29,959 bases of DNA, from IMG/VR virus record IMGVR_UViG_3300029955_000104, positions 1 through 29,959 of that record; one strand, 5' to 3'. The position numbers were made by a program, and so were the translations under genes. Each line of letters starts with the position of its first letter. The first letter of the stretch is position 1. Below are positions 16,945-29,959 of this stretch, piece after piece. Under the pieces are notes generated by a model. The model searched no databases. It was given only the letters and a program-made list of their open reading frames with translations, and was not told where the DNA came from. The stretch is from a virus.

Positions 16945-17532
16945 ATGACAAAAAAATGTAGTTCTTGTGGACAAGCTAAAAACTTAAAAGAATTCAAAAA
17001 TGAGAAGCGCAACGTCGATGGCAAAATGGGCCAATGTCGAAAATGTGTTAACTCAATACGAAGAGCACGAAGAGCACGAAATATAACTCATTGCCAAGTA
17101 AAAGAAGCAGAATATAACAAAAAACAAGTCGATAGCGGATATTGTAATAATTACTATCATAGAACGAGAACTCCCCAAAACCGTTTAATTATGAGTTTTC
17201 GTTCATTACTGCGAAGATGTTTAAAAGGTCAAATAAAAAAATCAAAAACCAAAGATTATCTAGGATGTACCTTAGATGAGATTAAAATTTATTTAGAAAA
17301 ACAATTTACAAAAGAAATGAATTGGGAAAACTATGGAACCTATTGGCAGGTTGACCACATAATTCCTTGTAAAGCATTTAATTTTTCTGACGACGAACAA
17401 ATCAAAAAATGCTACCATTATTCTAACCTGCAACCATTACCAAAATCAGTAAACATTTCAAAAAGCGATAAATTACCAAACGGAAACCGAGCAAGGTTTA
17501 TTATCCATGACAGCCGATATATCCAAAATTAA
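16945..17532 (+). CDS. HNH homing-type endonuclease
   Basis: The 195-residue protein begins with a zinc ribbon (CSSCGQAK, then CRKC) and has a C-terminal HNH nuclease: YWQVDHIIPCKAFNF carries the catalytic Asp-His, and HYSNLQPLPKSVNISKSDK the Asn and second metal site. A TGTAAATT -10-like box ends 5 nt before the ATG. It overlaps the RNA ligase gene by 26 nt at its end. Its insertion separated the ligase promoter and first 15 codons from the rest of the gene. Confidence 0.9.
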   Translation: MTKKCSSCGQAKNLKEFKNEKRNVDGKMGQCRKCVNSIRRARRARNITHCQVKEAEYNKKQVDSGYCNNYYHRTRTPQNRLIMSFRSLLRRCLKGQIKKSKTKDYLGCTLDEIKIYLEKQFTKEMNWENYGTYWQVDHIIPCKAFNFSDDEQIKKCYHYSNLQPLPKSVNISKSDKLPNGNRARFIIHDSRYIQN

Positions 17533-18709
17533 TACTGAGGAATTTGATTTTAAGCCCTGTGTGTTCGCGGGTGACGCATGTGTTCTAATTCATCCTAAAA
17601 ATATAGGAGCTAAATGGACAAAAGAAACCCTAATATATAGGTCTTCAATATGGCGTCTCTCAGATTGGTCGCCTATATCATTGTCGTTTAAGAAATTTTT
17701 TAACTTTGATGAGAGGAGCGATATTGTTCCAACCCCGTCATCCATGAAGGGCGTCGAACTTATGGAAAAAGTCGATGGTTCAACCCTTATCGTTTCCAAA
17801 TATAAGGGTGAGTATATCATACGTACTCGTGGAACTGTGGACGCATCCAAGCTTGAAAACGGTTTCGAAATCGAAATCTTGAAGCAAAAGTATCCTCGCG
17901 TTTTTACTTCTCTTCCCGGCGAAATAGAAACTTCACGAGAATCTTTGGTTTTCGAATGGGTTTCTCCTACTAACAAAATTGTCATCAGCTATGGTGACGA
18001 ACCCGAGTTATATTTGACTGCGGTTATCGACCACAACGATTATAGTTTACGTTCTCAAGACGAGCTAGACTCTCGTGCGGTTAACCTTGGAGTTAAGCGT
18101 CCACGTCGTTTCAAGTTCAATACTTTTGATGAAATGTTTGCTGCAATCCAAGCGCTAGACTACGCGAAGACTCGCGAATTCAACGCTCCACAAGAGTATC
18201 AATCTACTACTGGCGCACAAGCTGTTCCAGAGTTAGCTCGTGGATTCGAAGGATTCTGCGTGTACTTCGGTCGTGGACAGCATATTCGTAAGGTCAAGTC
18301 CGCATGGTATCTTGCACTTCACAAGTTAAAGTCTGAATTGTCGTCTTTCGACAAGGTTCTTGATTTGTGGATAACCCTTGATTGTAAGTCTTTCTCAGAA
18401 TTCTACGATTACGTTCTCGAAAATATCGACTACGAAATTGCCGAGCAGTCGCGTAATGACGCTTCTAAGGTGGCTGACGCTACCAAAGAAGTTGAGCGTA
18501 TCATCGCGGGTATGCAAGCATTTGCTGAAAGCATCAAACATCTCGCTATACAGTACGGTTTCCAAAAAGGACGTGCCGCACAAGCTAAGAAGATATTTGA
18601 AGCATATGGACAAACTAACCGCGCTTCTTATGTCTTCTCTATTTTGGATGGAAAGCAGTTGAGTCGTGATGCTGTTAAAAAACTATATTACCAAGTTCTA
18701 AAAAAATGA
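17507..18709 (+). CDS. RNA ligase, T4 Rnl1-like
   Basis: The 400-residue enzyme joins 3'-OH and 5'-phosphate RNA ends with ATP. The adenylated lysine is K88 in MEKVDGSTLIV (motif I); SLVFEWVSPTNKIVIS fits motifs III/IIIa, RGFEGFCVYF motif IV, and IRKVKSAWYL motif V. The C-terminal helical domain resembles T4 Rnl1, the tRNA repair ligase. Its first residues (MTADISKINTEEFDFK) overlap the HNH gene and seem to be a rebuilt start after the insertion. With the PNK-like kinase and phosphoesterase downstream it could form a heal-and-seal tRNA repair pathway. Confidence 0.88.
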   Translation: MTADISKINTEEFDFKPCVFAGDACVLIHPKNIGAKWTKETLIYRSSIWRLSDWSPISLSFKKFFNFDERSDIVPTPSSMKGVELMEKVDGSTLIVSKYKGEYIIRTRGTVDASKLENGFEIEILKQKYPRVFTSLPGEIETSRESLVFEWVSPTNKIVISYGDEPELYLTAVIDHNDYSLRSQDELDSRAVNLGVKRPRRFKFNTFDEMFAAIQALDYAKTREFNAPQEYQSTTGAQAVPELARGFEGFCVYFGRGQHIRKVKSAWYLALHKLKSELSSFDKVLDLWITLDCKSFSEFYDYVLENIDYEIAEQSRNDASKVADATKEVERIIAGMQAFAESIKHLAIQYGFQKGRAAQAKKIFEAYGQTNRASYVFSILDGKQLSRDAVKKLYYQVLKK

Positions 18710-19734: not shown

Positions 19735-20879
19735 TGGATATTGTTTTAAAATATCCTATTGTTCACGACGATTATACAGCCGTCGCAGAACAGATGTTTG
19801 ACGTTCCCCATGTCGAGGAAAGTGTTTCAATTATAACTAATAACATTACTCCTCCTGAAAATTGGAACATAGGACTTATATACGGTCCAAGCGGTAGCGG
19901 TAAGAGTACCTTGCTGAAAACTTTTGGTAAAATTCCTGAGTATGTGTGGGATGAATTAGCAGTAATAAGTAACTTCGATTACATAACTCCAGAAAAGGCA
20001 ACAGAGTTATTTTGTGCTGTAGGATTTGGGAATGTACCCGCTTGGCTTCGTCCTTTCAAGGCATTAAGTAATGGGGAGCAGTTTCGATGTAATGTAGCTA
20101 GAGCGATGTCAGAGGAGAGCGAGATTATTTTAATTGATGAATTTACCTCGGTAGTAGATAGGAATGTTGCTAAGTCCGCTTCGAACGCTTTACAAAAGTA
20201 CGTGCGTAATACTAACAAGAAAGTTGTCGTCGCTTCTTGTCACGCTGATATTATTGAATTTTTACAACCGGATTGGGTTTACAATCCTACAGAGGGACTG
20301 ACTCACGTTTTACCGCGTGGGAGTCTTCGACGACCTGAAATTTCACTTAAAGTATTCCGAAGCAAATATGAAGCGTGGGAACTTTTTAAACACTATCACT
20401 ATCTAAGTGCTGACATAAATAAAGGGGCGCGATGTTTTTTAGTTACGTGGAATGATAATCCCGTAGCTTTCTCTGCCGCCCTCGCTCATCCTAATGCTTA
20501 TAAAAAGGATTGCTGGCGCGAATCTCGTACTGTTGTATTGCCAGACTTTCAAGGATTAGGGATTGGAGTGAAAGTTTCTGATTATATTGGCTCCATGGTT
20601 AGGGCTGGAGGAGGAACGTATTACTCAAAGACTATTCATCCTGCGATGATAGCGTATCGTCTCAAAAGTGAGAAATGGGTAGAAACCTCTCATAGCCGAA
20701 AAGTTAGAAAGCTGGATACTCGTGACAAAAAATGGCTTGTGTCAAACCGCTTCTGCTATTCATTTGAGTACGTGGGTGGCATGAGTTCTGCTACGGACGC
20801 GCAACTCTTTTGGGAGGAACTGGATACGAAGAAGTCGAGGCTTCGATTAAAGGGCGAGAGGAAGTTCTTGACGGAATAG
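19734..20879 (+). CDS. ABC-type ATPase fused to a GNAT acyltransferase
   Basis: The 381-residue protein has two parts. Residues 1-195 form an ABC ATPase: Walker A GPSGSGKST (51-59), signature LSNGEQ (111-116), Walker B IILIDE (131-136) and switch His170. There are no membrane helices, so this is not a transporter. Residues about 200-350 form a GNAT fold with the acyl-CoA loop DFQGLGIG (271-278) and a HYHYLSADINKGARCFLV segment that recalls Mom-like acyltransferases. A soluble ATPase plus a Mom-like domain could modify DNA bases or RNA, but substrate and action are inferred. The ligase downstream starts 23 nt after its stop. Confidence 0.82.
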   Translation: MDIVLKYPIVHDDYTAVAEQMFDVPHVEESVSIITNNITPPENWNIGLIYGPSGSGKSTLLKTFGKIPEYVWDELAVISNFDYITPEKATELFCAVGFGNVPAWLRPFKALSNGEQFRCNVARAMSEESEIILIDEFTSVVDRNVAKSASNALQKYVRNTNKKVVVASCHADIIEFLQPDWVYNPTEGLTHVLPRGSLRRPEISLKVFRSKYEAWELFKHYHYLSADINKGARCFLVTWNDNPVAFSAALAHPNAYKKDCWRESRTVVLPDFQGLGIGVKVSDYIGSMVRAGGGTYYSKTIHPAMIAYRLKSEKWVETSHSRKVRKLDTRDKKWLVSNRFCYSFEYVGGMSSATDAQLFWEELDTKKSRLRLKGERKFLTE

Positions 20880-20902
20880 AAAATCCGCCTAGAATGGGAA
20901 CC

Positions 20903-21580
20903 ATGAATATTGCAAATAATGAATTCGTCGAATTCCCAAAGATGCCTCGTCTGTCGAGGAAAATGTCGTTGACTGAAAAAATCGACGGTACGAACGCGTC
21001 TATTGTAATCACAGACGAAGGAGAGTTTTTGGTTGGTAGTCGTACTCGTTGGATTACGCCCGAGCAAGACAACTATGGCTTTGCTCGCTGGGCCTACGCT
21101 AATAAGGATGAACTTATGGCCCTAGGAGTCGGTCGTCATTATGGTGAGTGGTGGGGCGCAGGTATTCAACGTGGATACGGTCAAAAGGAAAAGCATTTCT
21201 CGCTATTCAACGTGGGTCGTTGGGTAGATACGCGCCCGCACGCTTATTTTGATTGGTCTCCCGTCATGCTCGGTGGAGCGGAAAGTCCACTATTTGTCGT
21301 CAACGGCGTAGTCTCTCCTCTAAAGGAAAAGCAAGAATATGCGCCTGCGTGCTGTAGGGTTGTCCCCATCCTTTACGAAGGCATGTTCGATACGGTACAA
21401 ATCAAAAGAGTTTTAGACGCACTCGTTTGTTTTGGTAGCGTGGCAATTCATAATGGTGGCGTGGTAGAAAATAATTTCCCCGCAGAAGGTATAATTGTGT
21501 ATCATACAGCAGGAAACCTTTCCTTCAAAAAAACTATAGAACACGATGAAATCCCGAAATCAGCAATCAAAAAAATGTAG
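20903..21580 (+). CDS. Second RNA ligase family protein
   Basis: With the ATG at 20903 the protein is 225 residues; an ATG at 20894 is possible, and one at 20810 would overlap the previous gene by 70 nt. Nucleotidyltransferase motifs are visible: SLTEKIDGTNASIV with adenylated Lys26 (motif I), FLVGSRTRWI (Ia), HYGEWWGAGIQRGYG (III), EGIIVYH (IV) and LSFKKT (V). It lacks the extra domains of DNA ligases and fits the small phage RNA ligase family with a GEWWG motif. It would seal RNA nicks, giving the phage two RNA ligases. The HNH gene overlaps its end by 35 nt. Confidence 0.82.
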   Translation: MNIANNEFVEFPKMPRLSRKMSLTEKIDGTNASIVITDEGEFLVGSRTRWITPEQDNYGFARWAYANKDELMALGVGRHYGEWWGAGIQRGYGQKEKHFSLFNVGRWVDTRPHAYFDWSPVMLGGAESPLFVVNGVVSPLKEKQEYAPACCRVVPILYEGMFDTVQIKRVLDALVCFGSVAIHNGGVVENNFPAEGIIVYHTAGNLSFKKTIEHDEIPKSAIKKM

Positions 21581-24180: not shown

Positions 24181-24630
24181 ATGAAACCAACATTAATACT
24201 TATGGTCGGATGCGTTGCATCTGGCAAGACTCGCTTTTCGAAAGATTATGTCTCACTTAACCCTTCGGTCGTACGTCTTTCCACTGATGAGTTTCGCGCA
24301 ATCGTTGGTAATGGTGAAGGCGACCAAACCGTTAGCGGAAAGGTTTTTCAAACAGTATATGCAGTTACCGAGCATCTGTTGAAACAGGGTAAATCTGTTT
24401 TAATAGACGCTTGCAATTATCATTTGAAAGCGCGAAAAGATTTCCTAGACATAGCAAAACGATGTGACGCAGAAACAGCAGCGTATGTTTTTCGAGTGCC
24501 ATTAGACGTTCTTAAATTGAGAAATAAGGGTCGAGTGCGTCAAGTACCCGAAGATGTAATTGAAAAGCAATTTAACAATTTCGTAATTCCTACCGTTGGT
24601 GAGTTTGGATTCGTATGCAATGTAGAATAA
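24181..24630 (+). CDS. Polynucleotide 5'-kinase-like P-loop kinase
   Basis: The 149-residue protein is a P-loop kinase with MVGCVASGKTRF (Walker A at about 10-17), LSTDEFRAIV (catalytic Asp and Arg as in T4 PNK), VLIDACNYHLKARKDFLDIA and the lid segment LRNKGRVRQVPEDVI. This is the kinase half of T4 Pnk without the HAD phosphatase. It should phosphorylate 5'-OH ends left by anticodon nucleases. The following gene, 1 nt away, encodes a phosphoesterase that could supply the missing 3'-end healing activity. Confidence 0.85.
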   Translation: MKPTLILMVGCVASGKTRFSKDYVSLNPSVVRLSTDEFRAIVGNGEGDQTVSGKVFQTVYAVTEHLLKQGKSVLIDACNYHLKARKDFLDIAKRCDAETAAYVFRVPLDVLKLRNKGRVRQVPEDVIEKQFNNFVIPTVGEFGFVCNVE

Positions 24631-24631
24631 T

Positions 24632-25297
24632 ATGTCACAACACGTAAATTTTAATACTAAAAAAACCCCATTATGGATTGTGTCAGACACACACTTTCAC
24701 CATGACCGCGAATTCTTGTGGAAGCCTCGGGGCTACTCAGATATTCAATCGCATGACGAGGGTGTAAAAAAGAATTGGAATAACCTTGTAGGAAAGGACG
24801 ATAACGTTCTTTGTCTTGGTGATTTTGTATTCAACGACCCTGATGGTTCGCGCTTTAAGCAATTACTTTCAGAGCTAAATGGGTACATCTATTTACTATG
24901 GGGAAACCATAATAGCGGCGTGAAAGCCGTATATAAGAGTGAAGTCCTTCGACAGTATGGAAGCGCGTTAGTTGAGGTATATCCTTTAGCGTATGGTAAT
25001 AAAGTAATGTTTTTGGGCGACTATGTACTTGGACGCATTGATGGTGTGCCTTATGTTGCTTCGCACTTTCCATTTCGTATTTGGGATGAAATGCAGCACG
25101 GCTCTATTGCGTTGAGCGGCCATAGTCACGGTAACGATGAAGGGCGTAATCCAAAAGCTCTTGATGATAAAGCTCTCGATTGCGGCATCGACAACTTTGG
25201 TGGCCCCGTGTCATTTCAGGATGTAATGGAGATTATGAGGGGAAAGCAAACTGTTGTAATAGACCATCACGATAAGAATACTTTATCAGGGCATTAA
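24632..25297 (+). CDS. Calcineurin-like metallophosphoesterase
   Basis: The 221-residue protein has all family metal motifs: VSDTHFHHDREF, CLGDFVFND, LWGNHN, VASHFPF and SGHSHGND. It is a cytosolic two-metal phosphoesterase. It starts 1 nt after the kinase gene. In bacterial Pnkp a metallophosphoesterase domain heals 2',3'-cyclic phosphate ends beside a kinase, so here the same pair may be encoded as two polypeptides. Other substrates, such as cyclic nucleotides, cannot be excluded. Confidence 0.88.
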   Translation: MSQHVNFNTKKTPLWIVSDTHFHHDREFLWKPRGYSDIQSHDEGVKKNWNNLVGKDDNVLCLGDFVFNDPDGSRFKQLLSELNGYIYLLWGNHNSGVKAVYKSEVLRQYGSALVEVYPLAYGNKVMFLGDYVLGRIDGVPYVASHFPFRIWDEMQHGSIALSGHSHGNDEGRNPKALDDKALDCGIDNFGGPVSFQDVMEIMRGKQTVVIDHHDKNTLSGH

Positions 25298-25999: not shown

Positions 26000-26400
26000 A
26001 ACGATGAAACCGATTTTAAATAGAAACTTTACATATAGTCAGCCGAGCCTCGAAATAGGCGGGTGTGACGCCCAAAGATGGTCTGCCTATCTGACCTCTG
26101 AGGAAAAGCCGGGAGATACAGCAGATTAGAGAGTAGCAAGCCAGATAGGAAAGACGACGACCCGCTTGCTCTCAGAAAAAGACAGCGGGTTTTTTAGTCG
26201 CAAAACAGATTTTTTAGAACATATAGTGGAAACGATGGAACACCGACCCGAAGAGGGAGGCCGTCGAAAGAAACTCAGAAGGCGCTTTTAGAGTTCCAGC
26301 CTGAATGGAACAAATGTCCGGTCAACACCCTCGAAAAGAGCAATCCGGCTTACCAAACCACCTAGAGTGGCGCGGAACTCTGAATAGGTGTTAGTTTTTG
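26000..26400 (+). ncRNA. rnpB: RNase P RNA-like ribozyme gene
   Basis: The RNA following the tandem promoters has the core of bacterial RNase P RNA. GAGGAAAAGCCGGG (26100-26113) resembles CR-I (GAGGAAAGUCCGGG), and CAATCCGGCTTACC (26341-26354) resembles CR-V (AGAACCCGGCUUAU). AAGCCGG (26106-26112) pairs with CCGGCTT (26345-26351) as helix P4; the conserved bulged U is missing. GGGTGT (26061-26066) pairs with ACACCC (26325-26330) as P2. The order P2-5', P4-5', P2-3', P4-3' is the diagnostic pseudoknot. An outer P1 can form (CCGAGCC 26043-26049 with GGCGCGG 26369-26375, one mismatch; AAACT with AGTTT further out). It precedes an array of tRNA precursors, the RNase P substrates. No protein subunit gene is in the window. 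Confidence 0.72.
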
Positions 26401-26404
26401 GAAA

Positions 26405-26443
26405 GGATAGCACGCCGTCAAACGTGTGCTATCCCCAATTTTT
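26405..26443 (+). terminator. Rho-independent terminator after the RNase P-like RNA
   Basis: GGATAGCAC (26405-26413) and GTGCTATCC form a 9-bp stem followed by CCAATTTTT. It would end the ribozyme transcript or allow partial read-through into the tRNAs. Confidence 0.65.
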
Positions 26444-26508
26444 GCGCTAGTTTAATAACTAAAACGCTCTCAACTGTATGAGAGAGAATTCGGTAAACCG
26501 AAGCGCCA
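26442..26508 (+). tRNA. Cloverleaf-like element, not a standard tRNA
   Basis: GCGCT/AGCGC closes three perfect hairpins: AGTT-TAAT-AACT, CTCTCA-ACTGTA-TGAGAG and TTCGG-TAAA-CCGAA. The layout mimics a tRNA, but the anticodon loop has 6 nt, the T loop only 4, and a proper discriminator-CCA is not paired correctly. It may be a decayed tRNA or a tRNA-like RNA. Confidence 0.35.
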
Positions 26509-26509
26509 T

Positions 26510-26584
26510 GCGGGTATGATGTAATAGCTAGCATCGGGCGTTGCCAACGCTTGCGTGGGGATGCGAATTCCCCTACCCGCTCCA
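26510..26584 (+). tRNA. tRNA-Gly(GCC)
   Basis: Acceptor GCGGGTA/TACCCGC, anticodon arm GGGCG-TTGCCAA-CGCTT with anticodon GCC, T arm GGGGA-TGCGAAT-TCCCC, encoded CCA. The D loop has AG instead of GG and the T loop TGC instead of TTC. Confidence 0.95.
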
Positions 26585-26596
26585 TTTTAGTACCAT

Positions 26597-26670
26597 GCGA
26601 AGGTAGTTTAGCGTTCAGAACGTCGCCCTTAAAAGCGGAAACGTGGGTTAAAATCCCACCCTTTGCCCCA
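26597..26670 (+). tRNA. tRNA with UAA-like anticodon and expanded loop
   Basis: Acceptor GCGAAGG/CCTTTGC, D stem GTTT/GAAC, T arm GTGGG-TTAAAAT-CCCAC and CCA are good. The anticodon arm pairs best as TCGC-CCTTAAAA-GCGG, giving an 8-nt loop; a 7-nt loop (CTTAAAA, anticodon TAA, Leu) would leave two mismatches. There is no long variable arm, unlike bacterial tRNA-Leu, so identity is uncertain. Confidence 0.75.
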
Positions 26671-26672
26671 AT

Positions 26673-26749
26673 CGCCATTAGTTCAACATATTAGAACAGC
26701 GGCCACATGAAGGCCGAAGAAAGACGAGAATAACGTCCGGTGGCGACCA
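26673..26749 (+). tRNA. Atypical tRNA, identity uncertain
   Basis: Acceptor CGCCATT/GGTGGCG with discriminator A and CCA; D stem GTTC/GAAC; anticodon stem CGGCC/GGCCG with loop ACATGAA, which lacks U33 (apparent anticodon ATG); T arm GACG-AGAATAA-CGTC with a non-consensus loop and a long spacer before it. It may be a non-decoding tRNA or a decoy. Confidence 0.6.
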
Positions 26750-26828
26750 TCTTTGTTAGTTTAACTGGTTAAAATTCCCGGCTGTAAAAAGCGGGGGGAA
26801 CGAGGTTCGAACCCTCGACATTGAGCCA
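26750..26828 (+). tRNA. tRNA-Tyr(GTA)-like with 11-nt anticodon loop
   Basis: This starts at the base after the previous CCA. T arm CGAGG-TTCGAAC-CCTCG and D loop with GG are canonical. The anticodon stem TCCCG/CGGGG encloses an 11-nt loop GCTGTAAAAAG that contains the Tyr-like CTGTAAA. The acceptor TCTTTGT/ACATTGA has two T-T mismatches. Decoding ability is uncertain. Confidence 0.7.
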
Positions 26829-26830
26829 AT

Positions 26831-26904
26831 ACGCGTCTGGTGTAACAGAAGCATGATGGTCTCCAAAACCATTCGTCAGGGTGCAAGTCCTTGGATGCGT
26901 GCCA
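26831..26904 (+). tRNA. tRNA-Trp(CCA)
   Basis: Acceptor ACGCGTC/GATGCGT, anticodon arm ATGGT-CTCCAAA-ACCAT, T arm CAGGG-TGCAAGT-CCTTG, GCCA end. D loop AG and T loop TGC as in most tRNAs here. Confidence 0.95.
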
Positions 26905-26922
26905 TTTAATTCGTCTGCCCTC

Positions 26923-26991
26923 TCGATGGGACAGATGGCCTGAGAAGGCGATAATATCCGAAGCAGTGCGGTATTCTGAACTATCGAGCCA
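26923..26991 (+). tRNA. tRNA-like element with unusual internal folds
   Basis: TCGATGG pairs with CTATCGA followed by GCCA, as in a tRNA acceptor. Inside, GCCT-GAGA-AGGC is a GNRA tetraloop hairpin like a serine-type D arm, and AATA.CCG/CGG.TATT form another; no anticodon or T arm fits. It may be a degenerate tRNA or a distinct small RNA. The promoter of the next gene overlaps its end. Confidence 0.4.
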
Positions 26992-27010
26992 TTTGGGTGT
27001 AAAGAGTAGT

Positions 27011-27199
27011 ATGATTATATTACTATTCTATACAGCGTTGTTCGCACTCATTGCATGGGTTGCGTGGACATACATAACAATTCAATGGGCAAAGTATCTT
27101 GTCGGCGGGATTTTCTTCCTGTTGGCACTTTTTGAATTGCTCAGTTTTGCTCTCGATGTTATTAGTGGCGGCTCTGCCCCGCTATGGCATCATTGGTAA
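27011..27199 (+). CDS. Small membrane protein inside the tRNA array
   Basis: From the ATG at 27011 the product is 62 residues with two hydrophobic helices (MIILLFYTALFALIAWVAW at 1-19 and GGIFFLLALFELLSFALDVI at about 32-51) and a short polar end. A -10-like TGTAAAGA (27000-27005 core) lies 5 nt before the start, matching the leaderless pattern. A longer frame from 26891 would run through tRNA sequence and is rejected. It is holin-like in size, but the gene has no lysis neighbours in this window; its function is unknown. Confidence 0.68.
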   Translation: MIILLFYTALFALIAWVAWTYITIQWAKYLVGGIFFLLALFELLSFALDVISGGSAPLWHHW

Positions 27200-27201
27200 T
27201 T

Positions 27202-27276
27202 TGCCGCGATTAGATACTTCGGCAACTCGAACTACAACATAGTGTAGGCTTTTGGTGACTACAATCGTCGCAGCCA
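27202..27276 (+). tRNA. tRNA-like element with 6-nt anticodon loop
   Basis: TGCCGCG/CGTCGCA (one mismatch) with GCCA end; hairpins TTCG-GCAACT-CGAA and CTACA-ACATAG-TGTAG; T arm only TTG-GTGACTA-CAA. The anticodon loop has 6 nt and no U33, so normal decoding is unlikely. It starts right after the membrane protein stop codon. Confidence 0.5.
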
Positions 27277-27305
27277 GCCGTAGAGATTATGTTAGTAGTT
27301 TAATT

Positions 27306-27381
27306 GGGCTTATAGTGATAAAAGATAGCACATCGCACTTGCAATGCGAAAGACTCGGAGCGTTACCGAGTAGGTCCACCA
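27306..27381 (+). tRNA. tRNA-Ala(TGC)
   Basis: Acceptor GGGCTTA/TAGGTCC, anticodon arm TCGCA-CTTGCAA-TGCGA, T arm CTCGG-AGCGTTA-CCGAG, ACCA end. The T loop AGCGTTA swaps T54/A58 to A54/T58 and has G55; the D loop has AG. Confidence 0.93.
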
Positions 27382-27421
27382 ATTTTGTTCCCGTTCTCCA
27401 CCGCTGCGTGTAAAAGCGAGC

Positions 27422-27886
27422 ATGAGAACGATTACTTTAGTTTGCGCAACATGCGGTAAGCCCTTTGATAAGGAAATCAAAGAGTATAACCGCCGTCTCC
27501 GTCTAGGGAAAGCATCAATGTTCTGTGATGAAAAATGCGCGGGTGCAGATAGAGCGTTATCATTTGACCCATTCAAATCAATACTTCTTTTTGCCCGAAA
27601 AAACGCTCGTTCCAGACCTAAAGAATGCTCTATAACTAAAGAATATTTGGAATCTATTTGGCAAATCCAAAATGGTAAATGTGCTTATACTGACGTAGAG
27701 CTAGTTTTGCCGCATCCTAATAAGAGAGCACAACCAAATACCGCATCACTTGACCGTATCGACTCTTCAAAAGGATATATTAAGGGGAATGTTGAATTCG
27801 TATGCGTCTTTGTTAACTTAGGCAAGAATGGCTTTTCGAAGCAACAAGTAATAGACCTACTCAAGCAATTCAAGATTGGCATGTAG
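27422..27886 (+). CDS. HNH endonuclease within the tRNA array
   Basis: The 154-residue protein has an N-terminal zinc knuckle (CATCGKPFDKEIKEYNRR, then MFCDEKC) and a C-terminal nuclease with KCAYTDVEL, ASLDRIDSSKGYIKGNVEFV and VNLGKNGFSKQQV, the same LDRxDSxxGYxxGN signature as the 1684-2241 gene. A TGTAAAAG box ends 5 nt before the ATG. Its last 10 nt, including the stop TAG, are the first bases of tRNA-Ile, so the insertion reused tRNA sequence as its stop codon and could target tRNA genes. Confidence 0.9.
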   Translation: MRTITLVCATCGKPFDKEIKEYNRRLRLGKASMFCDEKCAGADRALSFDPFKSILLFARKNARSRPKECSITKEYLESIWQIQNGKCAYTDVELVLPHPNKRAQPNTASLDRIDSSKGYIKGNVEFVCVFVNLGKNGFSKQQVIDLLKQFKIGM

Positions 27887-27951
27887 CTCAGAAGCAGAGC
27901 ACTCGCTTGATAAGCGATAGGTCGAGATTGCAAAATTCTCTATGCCAACCA
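27877..27951 (+). tRNA. tRNA-Ile(GAT)
   Basis: Acceptor TGGCATG/TATGCCA, D stem GCTC/GAGC, anticodon arm with loop TTGATAA (GAT), T arm GAGAT-TGCAAAA-TTCTC, ACCA end. The HNH reading frame ends inside its acceptor/D region. Confidence 0.9.
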
Positions 27952-28010
27952 TTTTACTTCCTGTTTAAAATCAGCTTGGCAGATTATGTTTGCTAAATTA
28001 AAATTTACGT

Positions 28011-28067
28011 GGGCCGTCATGTACCATAGGGGGCGACGAATCCTTGCAAGCGCCTCACGGTCCACCA
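28011..28067 (+). tRNA. 57-nt minimal tRNA-like element
   Basis: A perfect 7-bp acceptor GGGCCGT/ACGGTCC with ACCA encloses only 39 nt, folding as ATG-TAC-CAT and GGGGCG/CGCCTC. There is no room for separate D, anticodon and T arms. It has the ends of a tRNA precursor but cannot decode. The 27952-28010 stretch before it holds nothing recognisable. Confidence 0.5.
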
Positions 28068-28089
28068 AAATAACGTGTAAAGTAGATAT

Positions 28090-28473
28090 ATGAAAATGAA
28101 TCTATCAGCGAGGACGGTATACGCCTTCCTATCTACTAAAATGTTTGTTATTGCGCTATTTACGTTGGCATTGCATCTTCATCATCGGTCCATTATGTAT
28201 TTTCCAGATTTGAGAAATACAATAGGCTGGCAGCTTTTCCTCCTTGTCGTAGGAGCGGCGGGCCTTATTAATTGTAGGTACAAATCCTACAAAGTTAGCA
28301 TTGCTGTATCAATTGCAATATTGTTAATTTCGAATTTTTTGATTATTGGACTGTATTTAAAAGATAATCAATCAGCGGATTGGGCGGGAAGAATAACTGA
28401 CGTTTTCTTTATAGCTTATACTCTAACGCACTTATTTAGGTATAAGAGGTTAGATGACAGAATTTTGTGTTAA
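28090..28473 (+). CDS. Membrane protein with about four transmembrane segments
   Basis: The 127-residue protein has four hydrophobic stretches (MFVIALFTLALHLHH, WQLFLLVVGAAGLIN, VSIAVSIAILLISNFLIIGL and ITDVFFIAYTLTHLF) with short polar loops. It lies inside the tRNA array and is preceded by TGTAAAGT (core 28078-28083) only 6 nt before the ATG. The family is not recognised. Its presence between tRNA genes with its own promoter suggests independent early expression. Confidence 0.72.
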   Translation: MKMNLSARTVYAFLSTKMFVIALFTLALHLHHRSIMYFPDLRNTIGWQLFLLVVGAAGLINCRYKSYKVSIAVSIAILLISNFLIIGLYLKDNQSADWAGRITDVFFIAYTLTHLFRYKRLDDRILC

Positions 28474-28520
28474 TAGCGTGTGTTTTGAGCGACTATACTA
28501 TGCCCCACGCTTGGAAAGAT

Positions 28521-28593
28521 GCACCGTAGTTCAATGTAGAACGTCCCGCCTAGAATTGCGGGAAATACTGGACGATTCCAGTCGGTGCCACCA
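28521..28593 (+). tRNA. Atypical tRNA with 8-nt anticodon loop
   Basis: GCACCG/CGGTGC acceptor, D stem GTTC/GAAC, anticodon stem TCCCGC/GCGGGA with 8-nt loop CTAGAATT, T arm ACTGG-ACGATT-CCAGT with a 6-nt loop, CACCA end. The anticodon could be AGA or GAA depending on register, so identity is not assigned. Confidence 0.65.
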
Positions 28594-28597
28594 TTTT

Positions 28598-28672
28598 GCT
28601 CGTATATTCCAACGCAGAGAAGCAACGTTGAGAACGTTGACAGTGGGAGTGCGAATCTCCCTACGAGCACCA
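28598..28672 (+). tRNA. tRNA with anticodon GAG (Leu?) lacking a long variable arm
   Basis: Acceptor GCTCGTA/TACGAGC, anticodon arm CAACG-TTGAGAA-CGTTG, T arm GGGAG-TGCGAAT-CTCCC, ACCA end. GAG reads Leu codons, but the variable loop is only about 5 nt, whereas bacterial tRNA-Leu is class II. Confidence 0.88.
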
Positions 28673-28677
28673 TATCA

Positions 28678-28724
28678 AACTCGCCACGCCTCTTAGTAAA
28701 GCGTAATTTGGTGAGTGTTTTTTA
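28678..28724 (+). terminator. Rho-independent terminator inside the tRNA array
   Basis: ACTCGCCA and TGGTGAGT (one G-T pair) form an 8-bp stem enclosing ACGC/GCGT, followed by GTTTTTT. It splits the array into at least two transcription units. Confidence 0.75.
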
Positions 28725-28725
28725 T

Positions 28726-28800
28726 CGCTGCATCGTTCATGTAGTAGGACTCAGGTTTCATAAGCCTAGAAAGAGGATGCAAACGCCTCTGTAGCGACCA
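28726..28800 (+). tRNA. tRNA-Met(CAT)
   Basis: Acceptor CGCTGCA/TGTAGCG, D stem GTTC/GGAC, anticodon loop TTCATAA (CAT) on a short stem, T loop TGCAAAC, ACCA end. It could also be an Ile tRNA with modified C34. Confidence 0.85.
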
Positions 28801-28806
28801 TTTTTT

Positions 28807-28880
28807 CGGGAATTAGTCTAATAGTAGGACGCGCCGTTTGGGGCGGTGTGGCGATGGAGCGTTACCATCATTCCCGACCA
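28807..28880 (+). tRNA. tRNA-Pro(TGG)
   Basis: Acceptor CGGGAAT/ATTCCCG, anticodon arm CGCCG-TTTGGGG-CGGTG, T arm GATGG-AGCGTTA-CCATC, ACCA end; D loop AG. Confidence 0.94.
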
Positions 28881-28885
28881 TTTAT

Positions 28886-28982
28886 CGCAGGGTGGAGCAA
28901 AAGTAGCTTGCTTGGCTCATGGCTTTTTCAGGCCAACGAGATAACCAAGAGGTAGTCGGAGCGTTACCGGCCCCTGTAACCA
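28886..28982 (+). tRNA. Initiator tRNA-fMet(CAT) with a 22-nt insertion in the anticodon loop
   Basis: Acceptor CGCAGGG/CCCTGTA with a C1-A72 mismatch, the mark of bacterial initiator tRNAs; D arm GAGC-AAAAGTA-GCTT, and TAGCTT...CTCAT...AACCAAGAGGTAGTCGG align with E. coli tRNA-fMet. The perfect stem CTTGG/CCAAG encloses a 29-nt loop: CTCAT, then 22 nt at 28921-28942 with a TGGC/GCCA mini-hairpin, then AA. Removing the 22 nt restores CTCATAA. T loop AGCGTTA, AACCA end. Confidence 0.88.
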
Positions 28983-28986
28983 AAAT

Positions 28987-29061
28987 CAGATACGAGGAAG
29001 ACAGTAATCCGCCTACTTGGGGTGTAGGAAATACCGAATGCAACCTTCGGGTATCTGACCA
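28987..29061 (+). tRNA. tRNA-Pro(GGG)
   Basis: Acceptor CAGATAC/GTATCTG, D stem GGA/TCC, anticodon arm CCTAC-TTGGGGT-GTAGG, T arm CCGAA-TGCAACC-TTCGG, ACCA end. Confidence 0.92.
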
Positions 29062-29137
29062 TCAGAAGAGTGAAACGGAATTCATTCGCGGCTCATAACC
29101 GTTGAGATAGTTGGTTCGACTCCAACTTCTGAAACCA
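29062..29137 (+). tRNA. tRNA-Met or tRNA-Ile2 (CAT)
   Basis: This abuts the previous CCA with no spacer. Anticodon loop CTCATAA, T arm GTTGG-TTCGACT-CCAAC and D loop with GG: one of only two tRNAs here with the standard elbow. Acceptor TCAGAA/TTCTGA, ACCA end. Confidence 0.87.
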
Positions 29138-29212
29138 CGCAGTATAGTATAAAATTAGTACACTCCCGCGTTCATGGGAGAGGCTGACGTGAGACTCGTC
29201 ATGCTGCAACCA
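29138..29212 (+). tRNA. Atypical tRNA with 8-nt anticodon loop and C1-A72
   Basis: This abuts the previous tRNA. Acceptor CGCAGTA/TGCTGCA with a C1-A72 mismatch, D stem GTAT/GTAC, anticodon stem CTCCC/GGGAG with 8-nt loop GCGTTCAT, T arm TGACG-TGAGACT-CGTCA, ACCA end. The anticodon cannot be fixed. Confidence 0.75.
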
Positions 29213-29236
29213 TAAAAAAGAACTGTTTATGAAAAT

Positions 29237-29310
29237 GGGAGTGTGGTGTAATAGTAGCACGAGTGCCTGTCGAGCATTTAGCAGGGGAGCGTAACCCCTT
29301 ACTCCCGCCA
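29237..29310 (+). tRNA. tRNA-Asp(GTC), first copy
   Basis: Acceptor GGGAGTG/TACTCCC, anticodon arm AGTGC-CTGTCGA-GCATT, T arm AGGGG-AGCGTAA-CCCCT, GCCA end; D loop AG. Confidence 0.93.
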
Positions 29311-29410
29311 TTACATCAAAGAGAAACGGCCCGCAAGGGTACATTGTCCGTCTTTCAATAGCGGCTTTACTCCTAGTGACCATGTAACGGGTTAGCCCGA
29401 TATAGCTTTT
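29311..29410 (+). other. Structured spacer of unknown function
   Basis: No gene is seen. The stretch can fold AAAG..ACGG/CCGT.CTTT around CCC-GCAA-GGG (GNRA loop), and CGGG-TTAG-CCCG near its end; TTACAT and ATGTAA could close it. A GACCA occurs at 29377-29381 but no matching acceptor is found. It may be a degenerate tRNA or a small RNA. Confidence 0.35.
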
Positions 29411-29567
29411 GGGTGAGTAGTCAAGAGAGACGAAAGACACCAGCATCTAAGCTGGAATAGAAATTAGTATGTGGTGGCGACAGGAGAAATAAGCATGAAT
29501 AAACCTCCTGCTGGCGCTATCAACAGCTAATCGAACACCGGGGGTTAAAATCCTTCCTTGCCCACCA
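29411..29567 (+). tRNA. 157-nt tRNA-like gene with 29-nt anticodon loop and long variable region
   Basis: Acceptor GGGTGAG/CTTGCCC, ACCA end and T arm GGGGG-TTAAAAT-CCTTC are clear. CACCA (29438-29442) and TGGTG (29472-29476) can form the anticodon stem around 29 nt, though CCAGC/GCTGG is an alternative. A 63-nt variable region holds a CAGGAG/CTCCTG stem. The identity cannot be read. Confidence 0.55.
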
Positions 29568-29572
29568 ATTTT

Positions 29573-29648
29573 GGATAGGAGTTTGAAAAGTATCAATACT
29601 TGATTGTCAATCAAGTTTAAGCGGGCGCGATACCCGTCCTATCCGCCA
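29573..29648 (+). tRNA. tRNA-Asp(GTC), second copy
   Basis: Acceptor GGATAGG/CCTATCC, anticodon arm CTTGA-TTGTCAA-TCAAG, T arm GCGGG-CGCGATA-CCCGT, GCCA end. It differs clearly in sequence from the first Asp tRNA. Confidence 0.93.
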
Positions 29649-29652
29649 TGTT

Positions 29653-29784
29653 GAGCGTTGTGGCGAAATTAGCAGACGCGCTGGTTACAAAGGAAGTCCT
29701 TCAAGCTTCCCTAGACTGGTGGCAAACGGACGAATTGAAGCGTCGAGAGTTGCCTTATAGGTGCAAATCCTATCAAACTCACCA
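29653..29784 (+). tRNA. tRNA-Leu-like gene with 29-nt anticodon loop and extended variable arm
   Basis: TGGCGAAATTAGCAGACGCG matches a class II tRNA-Leu D arm. CTGGT/ACTGG encloses a 29-nt loop (29686-29714) with an inner GGAAG/CTTCC hairpin. The variable arm has GGCAA/TTGCC and GACG/CGTC stems. T arm ATAGG-TGCAAAT-CCTAT, ACCA end. The acceptor GAG..TTG/CAA.CTC has an internal mismatch. The anticodon depends on how the loop is processed. Confidence 0.65.
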
Positions 29785-29843
29785 TCTCAGAGAGTTAGTA
29801 TGTCGGACTGCTCTCCAATCACCCAAAAAATGAAAGGAAAGCA

Positions 29844-29959
29844 ATGAAAAAAGTAATAGCAATCGTATTAACTATGTTATTCCTAACTTGTAGTAGTCCA
29901 GCATCCAGTTGGTTTTCTCGTCACAAGTTCGGATACAATAAACCTAGAACAATCGTAGC
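29844..29959 (+). CDS. Small lipoprotein, C-terminus cut by window edge
   Basis: The frame starts at an ATG with an AAAGGAAA ribosome site 5 nt upstream and is open to the window end (38 codons). It begins MKKVIAIVLTMLFLTCSSPA, a lipoprotein signal peptide with lipobox FLTC, followed by SSWFSRHKFGYNKPRTIV. It should be exported and lipid-anchored. It could be an outer spanin subunit or an exclusion lipoprotein, but too little is visible. Confidence 0.75.
   Translation, partial: MKKVIAIVLTMLFLTCSSPASSWFSRHKFGYNKPRTIV

What the first reader, a model, noticed from the sequence alone, without database searches (positions are those of the whole stretch)
28886..28982. Initiator tRNA with a 22-nt intron-like insertion in the anticodon loop
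Flanks align closely with bacterial tRNA-fMet, including C1-A72. The 29-nt loop becomes a normal CTCATAA loop if 28921-28942 is removed. The site, next to position 36/37, is where archaeal and eukaryotic tRNA introns lie, but bacteria and phages normally have only self-splicing group I introns in tRNAs. 22 nt is too small to self-splice, so a protein- or RNase P-dependent removal, or a non-decoding role, is implied.
Basis: partly seen in the sequence, partly recalled or inferred. Interest (0 to 1): 0.92.

Follow-up and report, generated by a model that had tools for sequence, protein, structure and literature searches.

The report
Structured insert in phage start tRNA
A large phage carries a translation-start tRNA gene interrupted in its anticodon loop by a small folded insert, and two dissimilar phages carry different inserts at the same spot, so this looks like a recurring intron-like feature of phage tRNAs whose removal still has to be shown.

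Summary
Window 28886-28982 is an initiator-type tRNA-Met gene (C1xA72, A11:U24, CAU, encoded CCA) with a 29-nt anticodon loop. Removing 28921-28942 leaves a normal CTCATAA loop. A near-identical contig has the same insert. Pattern scans of IMG/VR found two dissimilar phages with different inserts (24 and 39 nt) at the same 36/37 position. Both score above Rfam's tRNA cut-off. One scan of 84,980 prokaryote genomes gave 7 contigs, all exon duplications or N joins. Other phages carry uninterrupted versions (93% exon identity). A Leu(CAA)-type tRNA 0.7 kb away has a 22-nt structured excess at the same place. Three of four inserts fold better than shuffles (p<0.05). The window phage encodes a PNK-like kinase, a phosphoesterase and two RNA ligases; the second phage encodes RlaP and a CCA-adding-type enzyme. 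Best reading, unproven: a small protein-spliced intron, cut by an unidentified nuclease and rejoined by RNA-repair enzymes. Rivals: a retained insert that evades or baits anticodon nucleases, or a decayed gene. No strict archaeal BHB motif is present; no EndA or RtcB gene was found in four virus records.

The parts
28886..28982 (+). initiator-type tRNA-Met(CAU) gene with an enlarged (29-nt) anticodon loop
   Evidence: direct reading, finder, covariance model R1
28886..28920 (+). 5' half of the tRNA; anticodon CAT at 28918-28920
28921..28942 (+). 22-nt structured insert, after position 36; TGGCTT/AGGCCA hairpin (its first T is U36) plus CTC(32-34):GAG pairing next to a 4-nt ATAA bulge
28943..28982 (+). 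3' half of the tRNA with encoded CCA
29653..29784 (+). class II Leu(CAA)-type tRNA with a 29-nt anticodon loop, a long variable arm and an imperfect acceptor stem
   Evidence: hand parse; MFE contains anticodon arm, insert hairpin, V arm and T arm but not the acceptor stem; not detected as a whole by Rfam or R1
29691..29712 (+). 22-nt excess in the anticodon loop of the Leu-type tRNA, same position (36/37, ambiguous by an AG repeat)
26510..29784 (+). part of a large tRNA array; it continues beyond the window in contig L126 to extended coordinate 35610
24181..24630 (+). PNK-like P-loop kinase (possible 5'-OH healing)
   Evidence: Pfam AAA_33 3.7e-21, phrog_505 polynucleotide kinase 2.7e-19
24632..25297 (+). 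phosphoesterase (possible 3'-end healing)
   Evidence: phrog_547 3.6e-38; weak PDB phosphohydrolase hits; no Pfam match
17507..18709 (+). T4 Rnl1-family RNA ligase
   Evidence: PF09511 1.9e-14, phrog_562 4.3e-32, PDB RNA ligase 2.3e-7 and T4 RNA ligase 1 7.1e-7
20810..21580 (+). RNA_ligase-family (Rnl2-like) ligase
   Evidence: PF09414 6.2e-14, phrog_548 2.2e-29

Best explanation
A small, structured, non-self-splicing intron in the anticodon loop of a phage initiator tRNA (and probably of a Leu-type tRNA in the same array). Shown by sequence: the gene, the insert, intact cloverleaf pairing, recurrence at the same site in dissimilar phages. Inferred: the precursor forms an extended anticodon arm; an unidentified endonuclease (host or phage) cuts after U36 and before A37; the phage kinase, phosphoesterase and Rnl-type RNA ligase heal and seal the halves, much as T4 repairs anticodon-cut tRNA and as fungal and plant tRNA splicing works. 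This would yield a 75-nt initiator tRNA.
For: Exact removal restores a 7-nt CTCATAA loop. Same-site inserts of 22, 24 and 39 nt in three phages, all reading GGCTCAT...ATAACC. The three phages show no protein similarity over the stretches held (0 tblastn hits at 1e-4 in three comparisons) and the inserts are no more alike than shuffles. L140 and L128 score 48.0 and 45.7 bits against Rfam tRNA, gathering score 29; ARAGORN's intron mode reports both. All three keep a 1x72 mismatch typical of initiators (CxA, UxU, AxA). Insert folds beat insert shuffles in 3 of 4 cases (p 0.038, 0.22, 0.009, 0.014). In 3 of 3 fMet cases anticodon-loop bases 32-34 or 33-35 can pair with a triplet just before the last 4-5 loop bases (chance about 0.001, noticed after the fact; 0 of 1 for Leu). 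RNA-repair genes: kinase, phosphoesterase and two RNA ligases in the window phage; RlaP and a CCA-adding-type enzyme in the L128 phage. Uninterrupted counterparts exist, e.g. MT835736.1, 93% over 75 bases.
Against: No spliced RNA seen. No tRNA splicing endonuclease (PF01974) or RtcB (PF01139) in 4 of 4 virus records searched, all linear and possibly fragments. No T4-type RNA ligase in the L128 and L140 contigs. Predicted arms differ between the phages and none is a strict BHB motif. The whole window precursor is not unusually stable (z -1.07) and its free MFE is not the cloverleaf (-31.8 versus -30.9 forced). The window gene is missed by Rfam and ARAGORN, though array neighbours share its odd T loop. 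The array model scores the L128 gene weakly (13.8 bits, E 0.0085) and does not list the L140 gene at E up to 0.1. An uninterrupted Leu(CAA) tRNA exists in the same array (35520-35610 in extended coordinates), so the interrupted Leu copy is not obviously needed.
Confidence: 0.45

Rival explanations
1. Retained insert. The RNA keeps its enlarged anticodon arm and does not decode; it serves as a decoy or nuclease-resistant tRNA mimic against host enzymes that attack the initiator anticodon loop, such as VapC.
For: VapC toxins of Shigella and Salmonella cut tRNA-fMet between A38 and C39 (PMC4105405, passages); phage tRNAs are proposed to evade anticodon nucleases by anticodon-loop changes (PMC10264068, passages). 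Differing insert sequences at one site fit disruption of a recognised loop.
Against: A decoy should keep the recognised loop; a resistant tRNA should still decode, which a 29-46 nt loop should not (general knowledge). It does not explain why removal restores exactly 7 nt with the same flanks in three phages.
Confidence: 0.28
2. Decayed or scarred gene: an insertion into the anticodon region (for instance a break by a homing endonuclease that targets fMet anticodon DNA, with a 2-bp duplication) left non-functional tRNA genes.
For: 2-nt AT repeat flanking all three fMet inserts and AG in the Leu case; a group I intron endonuclease specific for the fMet anticodon region is known (title in the reference list of PMC3984707); window and Leu tRNAs score poorly; a homing-type endonuclease gene lies in the array (27422-27886).
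Against: Stems are intact in all three fMet genes, and two score well as tRNAs. Three of four inserts fold better than shuffles. Same site three times. Phages tend to lose dead genes (general knowledge).
Confidence: 0.2
3. Artefact: chance match or assembly error.
For: 10 of the 13 distinct loci from the five insert-pattern scans were not genuine; all 7 genome-contig hits were duplications or N joins.
Against: Window insert repeated in a separate contig; no N or exon duplication in the three genes; full cloverleaf in all three.
Confidence: 0.04

Closest known systems
Archaeal BHB and eukaryotic nuclear tRNA introns
   Same: Small (one archaeal passage: mostly 12-25 nt; eukaryotic 6-133 nt; PMC4090602, passages), in the anticodon loop next to the anticodon, removal restores a 7-nt loop; the window arm is loosely BHB-like in layout (outer helix, 3' bulge, 3 bp, small internal loop, inner helix)
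   Different: 36/37 not 37/38; no strict bulge-helix-bulge; bacterial-type initiator tRNA in phages; no EndA found
Bacterial group I introns in tRNA-fMet and tRNA-Leu (cyanobacteria)
   Same: Same genes and anticodon-region insertion (recalled; titles seen in the reference list of PMC3984707)
   Different: Those are self-splicing ribozymes of hundreds of bases (recalled); here 22-39 nt. PMC3984707 (2014, passages) says all introns observed in phages to date were in protein-coding genes
T4 Pnkp/Rnl1 repair of PrrC-cut tRNA-Lys
   Same: Phage kinase, phosphatase and ligase act on an anticodon-loop break (PMC3400036, passages); the window phage encodes counterparts by family
   Different: That repairs damage; here it would complete splicing, which is inferred only
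Bacterial rRNA intervening sequences removed by RNase III
   Same: Short structured inserts in a stable RNA (recalled)
   Different: rRNA pieces are not rejoined (recalled); a tRNA cut at 36/37 would need ligation

Membership tests
Bacterial initiator tRNA | mismatch at 1x72 | tested here: met
   CxA (window), UxU (L128), AxA (L140)
Bacterial initiator tRNA | A11:U24 and CAU anticodon | tested here: met
   D stem GAGC/GCTT (window, L128) or GAGC/GCTC (L140) with CTCAT in all three
Bacterial initiator tRNA | three G:C pairs 29-31:39-41 | tested here: not met
   window and L128 have U29:A41 (2 of 3 G:C); L140 has all three. Uninterrupted initiator-like tRNAs of a 595-kb phage and a Caulobacter phage also have CTTGG/CCAAG. 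Hence 'initiator-type', not certified initiator
Archaeal BHB tRNA intron | 4-bp helix flanked by two 3-nt bulges | tested here: not met
   constrained folds: 4-nt bulge, 3 bp, 1x2 internal loop in the window; other layouts in L128 and L140
Archaeal BHB tRNA intron | EndA-type splicing endonuclease available | tested here: inconclusive
   0 of 4 virus records, possibly fragments; hosts unknown
Group I intron | ribozyme core and size | tested here: not met
   22-39 nt, too short for the core; only tRNA matches in the window at gathering thresholds
Protein-spliced tRNA intron in general | joined tRNA accumulates in vivo | not testable with these tools
   needs RNA data
Protein-spliced tRNA intron in general | removal restores a 7-nt anticodon loop within a paired cloverleaf | tested here: met

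The most novel reading that the evidence does not exclude
Phages infecting bacteria carry genuine protein-spliced introns in their own tRNAs, including the initiator tRNA, spliced by a phage RNA-repair pathway (endonuclease plus kinase, phosphatase and Rnl-type ligase). Phage translation start would then depend on phage repair enzymes, and cut-and-rejoin tRNA splicing would exist in the bacterial world.
Probability: 0.35. Interest if true: 0.93.

Novelty: new variant of a known kind. Interest (0 to 1): 0.76.

Why it matters
Bacterial tRNAs are described as interrupted by self-splicing introns only (PMC3400036, passages). A recurring small structured insert in phage initiator-type tRNAs would imply either enzymatic tRNA splicing in bacterial cells or a new kind of tRNA mimic in the conflict over tRNAs. 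It gives a concrete test of what phage RNA-repair genes do when no damage is inflicted.

Tried and rejected
Chance hits: of 13 distinct loci returned by the five insert-pattern scans, 3 are genuine (L060, which is the near-identical copy of the window; L128; L140). L138 and L139 hold ordinary fMet genes with a chance downstream match. L141-L144 show no tRNA by ARAGORN and L155-L158 none by Rfam; the matched stretches do not form a cloverleaf by eye. That screen printed 24 rows, among them the genome contigs artefacts and entries in L044, L074, L112, L129 and L138/L139 not followed as introns, so its specificity is low; it also misses the window gene.

The genome-contig scan gave 7 contigs with 8 sites: N joins in 5 contigs, internal exon duplications in the other 2. 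Only one exact pattern was scanned, so divergent initiators would be missed.

Relatives for exon/insert conservation were sought and not found: the protein next to the array gave only 2 contigs, both 100% identical; three terminase relatives of L140 have no tRNA match in the stretches held. A control scan for inserts at other tRNA positions was not run, so site preference outside the anticodon loop is untested. One search allowed inserts from 36/37 to 38/39 and gave no new genuine case.

RNase P removal, group I remnant and strict BHB intron were considered and are not supported. Whole-array BLAST against phages found only short matches of tRNA length in 22 records and a near-identity search of 25 kb found none; plasmids gave none. 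The L128 precursor as query gave 43 phage records, none covering 80% of it. Ten paper searches (several listings were capped) showed nothing that I recognised as describing small non-self-splicing introns in phage tRNAs; only open-licence PMC papers are held.

Full report
What is there. The window is a 29,959-base virus record. From 26510 it holds a tRNA array that continues in a near-identical, longer contig (L126, IMGVR_UViG_3300031524_000008, 99.98% over 14.66 kb). In 26001-29959 the two differ only by an indel at 28801 and changes at 29942 and 29945, outside the tRNA in question. A covariance model built from 27 array tRNAs (27 of the 41 rows) gives 54 matches at E<0.001, of 73 listed, in L126 plus L162; 27 of the 54 are the training sequences.

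The finding. 28886-28982 reads as an initiator-type tRNA: C1xA72, D stem with A11:U24, CAU, T stem GTCGG/CCGGC, encoded CCA. Its anticodon loop is CTCAT-GGCTTTTTCAGGCCAACGAGAT-AA, 29 nt. In the finder's list, 36 of 41 rows have a 7-nt loop; the other five are this gene (29), 31889 (9), 30594 (45, better read as an enlarged region 3' of a 7-nt loop), and two that I take for misparses (31395, 35091). The finder penalises loops other than 7 nt, and at least one 7-nt row (27539) lies in a coding stretch (extended coordinates). So the insert stands out in its own array, with that caveat.

A second case in the array. 29653-29784 has the D arm of a class II Leu tRNA, a CTGGT/ACTGG anticodon stem and a 29-nt loop TACAA-AGGAAGTCCTTCAAGCTTCCCT-AG. 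Removing 22 nt leaves TACAAAG with anticodon CAA. Its unconstrained MFE contains the anticodon arm with the insert hairpin, a long variable arm and the T arm. Its acceptor stem is imperfect and absent from that MFE, and neither Rfam nor the array model finds it whole. This case is weaker and rests on a hand parse.

Recurrence elsewhere. Pattern scans of IMG/VR found two more phages. L128 (IMGVR_UViG_3300007734_000743, 62 kb) has a 24-nt insert; its contig encodes a DNA polymerase, a DnaB-like helicase, and UvsX-like and RecJ-like proteins. L140 (IMGVR_UViG_3300035698_002384, 11.7 kb) has a 39-nt insert that on its own folds into two perfect hairpins, though within the forced anticodon arm the MFE is a different fold; a terminase gene starts 755 bases downstream. 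Rfam scores them 45.7 and 48.0 bits with the excess in the anticodon loop; ARAGORN's intron mode reports both, though it names L128 Ile. The array-specific model is weak on L128 and does not list L140. The stretches held of the three phages show no protein similarity (0 tblastn hits at 1e-4 in each of three comparisons; the only shared DNA is two pieces of 33-34 bases between L128 and L140, one of them the tRNA), and the inserts are no more alike than shuffles. All three genes read GGCTCAT...ATAACC. Searches required the last T, which found the window copy and L128, did not. In L128 the encoded CCA is one base out of register with a 7-bp acceptor stem.

Empty sites. In the phage collection, 379 records match the L140 exons at E<=1e-3; the 60 listed rows are all single-piece matches of 70-76 bases, that is uninterrupted, and a few of the records are bacterial or prophage-like. 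The closest, MT835736.1, matches both L140 exons at 93% across a continuous 75 bases. For the window exons 23 records matched, 12 of them in part; the three partial ones that I read are uninterrupted, and a 595-kb phage and a Caulobacter phage share the CTTGG/CCAAG stem. One scan of genome contigs gave 7 contigs, all exon duplications or N joins.

Structure. The whole window precursor is not unusually stable (z -1.07), and its free MFE is slightly better than the cloverleaf (-31.8 versus -30.9). With the anticodon stem forced, the window arm is CTTGG/CCAAG, then a 3' ATAA bulge, CTC:GAG, a 1x2 internal loop and TGGCTT/AGGCCA. Tests against 1000 shuffles of the insert alone (base composition kept) give p = 0.038 (window), 0.22 (L128), 0.009 (L140) and 0.014 (Leu). 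A triplet that can pair with bases 32-34 or 33-35 just before the last 4-5 loop bases occurs in 3 of 3 fMet genes (chance 0.10, 0.13, 0.08) and 0 of 1 Leu; this was noticed after the fact, and the MFE uses it only in the window. It recalls the anticodon-intron pairing of eukaryotic pre-tRNAs (recalled), but the strict BHB motif is absent.

Enzymes. Within 11.4 kb upstream of the tRNA the window phage encodes an Rnl1-family ligase, an RNA_ligase-family ligase, a PNK-like kinase and a phosphoesterase. The L128 phage encodes RlaP (PF10127, 2.2e-19) and a CCA-adding-type enzyme with an HD domain. A jumbo-phage survey describes RlaP as functioning alongside RNA ligases (PMC7824862, passages). EndA and RtcB were not found in 4 of 4 virus records, which may be fragments; T4-type ligases were found only in the window phage among three; RlaP only in the L128 phage among three. 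RNA-repair genes are common in jumbo phages by that survey, so this association is suggestive only.

Judgement. The recurring insert at one position of phage initiator-type tRNAs is well supported. That it is spliced is inferred. I put 0.45 on protein-dependent splicing with RNA repair, 0.28 on a retained insert with a defence-related role (VapC toxins cut fMet between A38 and C39), 0.2 on decay, 0.04 on artefact.

Noticed in passing
window 28680-28716: Near-threshold Rfam match to abiF RNA (34.0 bits, gathering 37, E 0.0006) lying between two tRNA genes; a phage copy of an RNA named for abortive-infection loci would be of interest.
   Followed up: no
L148 3654-3777 (LR745206.1, 634-kb uncultured phage): tRNA with intact acceptor, D and T arms (Rfam 40.9 bits) but about 62 bases, with possible hairpins, in place of the anticodon arm.
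   Followed up: partly
L126 15294-15408: Arg(TCG)-like tRNA of 115 nt (Rfam 40.4 bits) with an enlarged region 3' of the anticodon arm.
   Followed up: no
window 26510-29784 and L126: Most array tRNAs lack the TTC motif of the T loop (loops such as TGCGAAT, AGCGTTA); only 3 of 53 printed anchors, some of them chance, carry it.
   Followed up: no
L162 3650-3724: ARAGORN names a tRNA-Pyl with anticodon CTA, a possible amber suppressor.
   Followed up: no
L126 16589-16665 and window 28520-28590: tRNAs with 9-nt and (by eye) 8-nt anticodon loops in the same array.
   Followed up: no
window 27422-27886: Endonuclease gene (phrog_3322; also an HNH family, phrog_3118) whose end overlaps the tRNA at 27877, a possible homing endonuclease in the array; no Pfam match.
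   Followed up: no
window 28726-28800 and 29061-29137: Two more CAT-anticodon tRNAs (the second read by eye) beside the initiator-type gene, probably elongator Met or Ile2 types.
   Followed up: no
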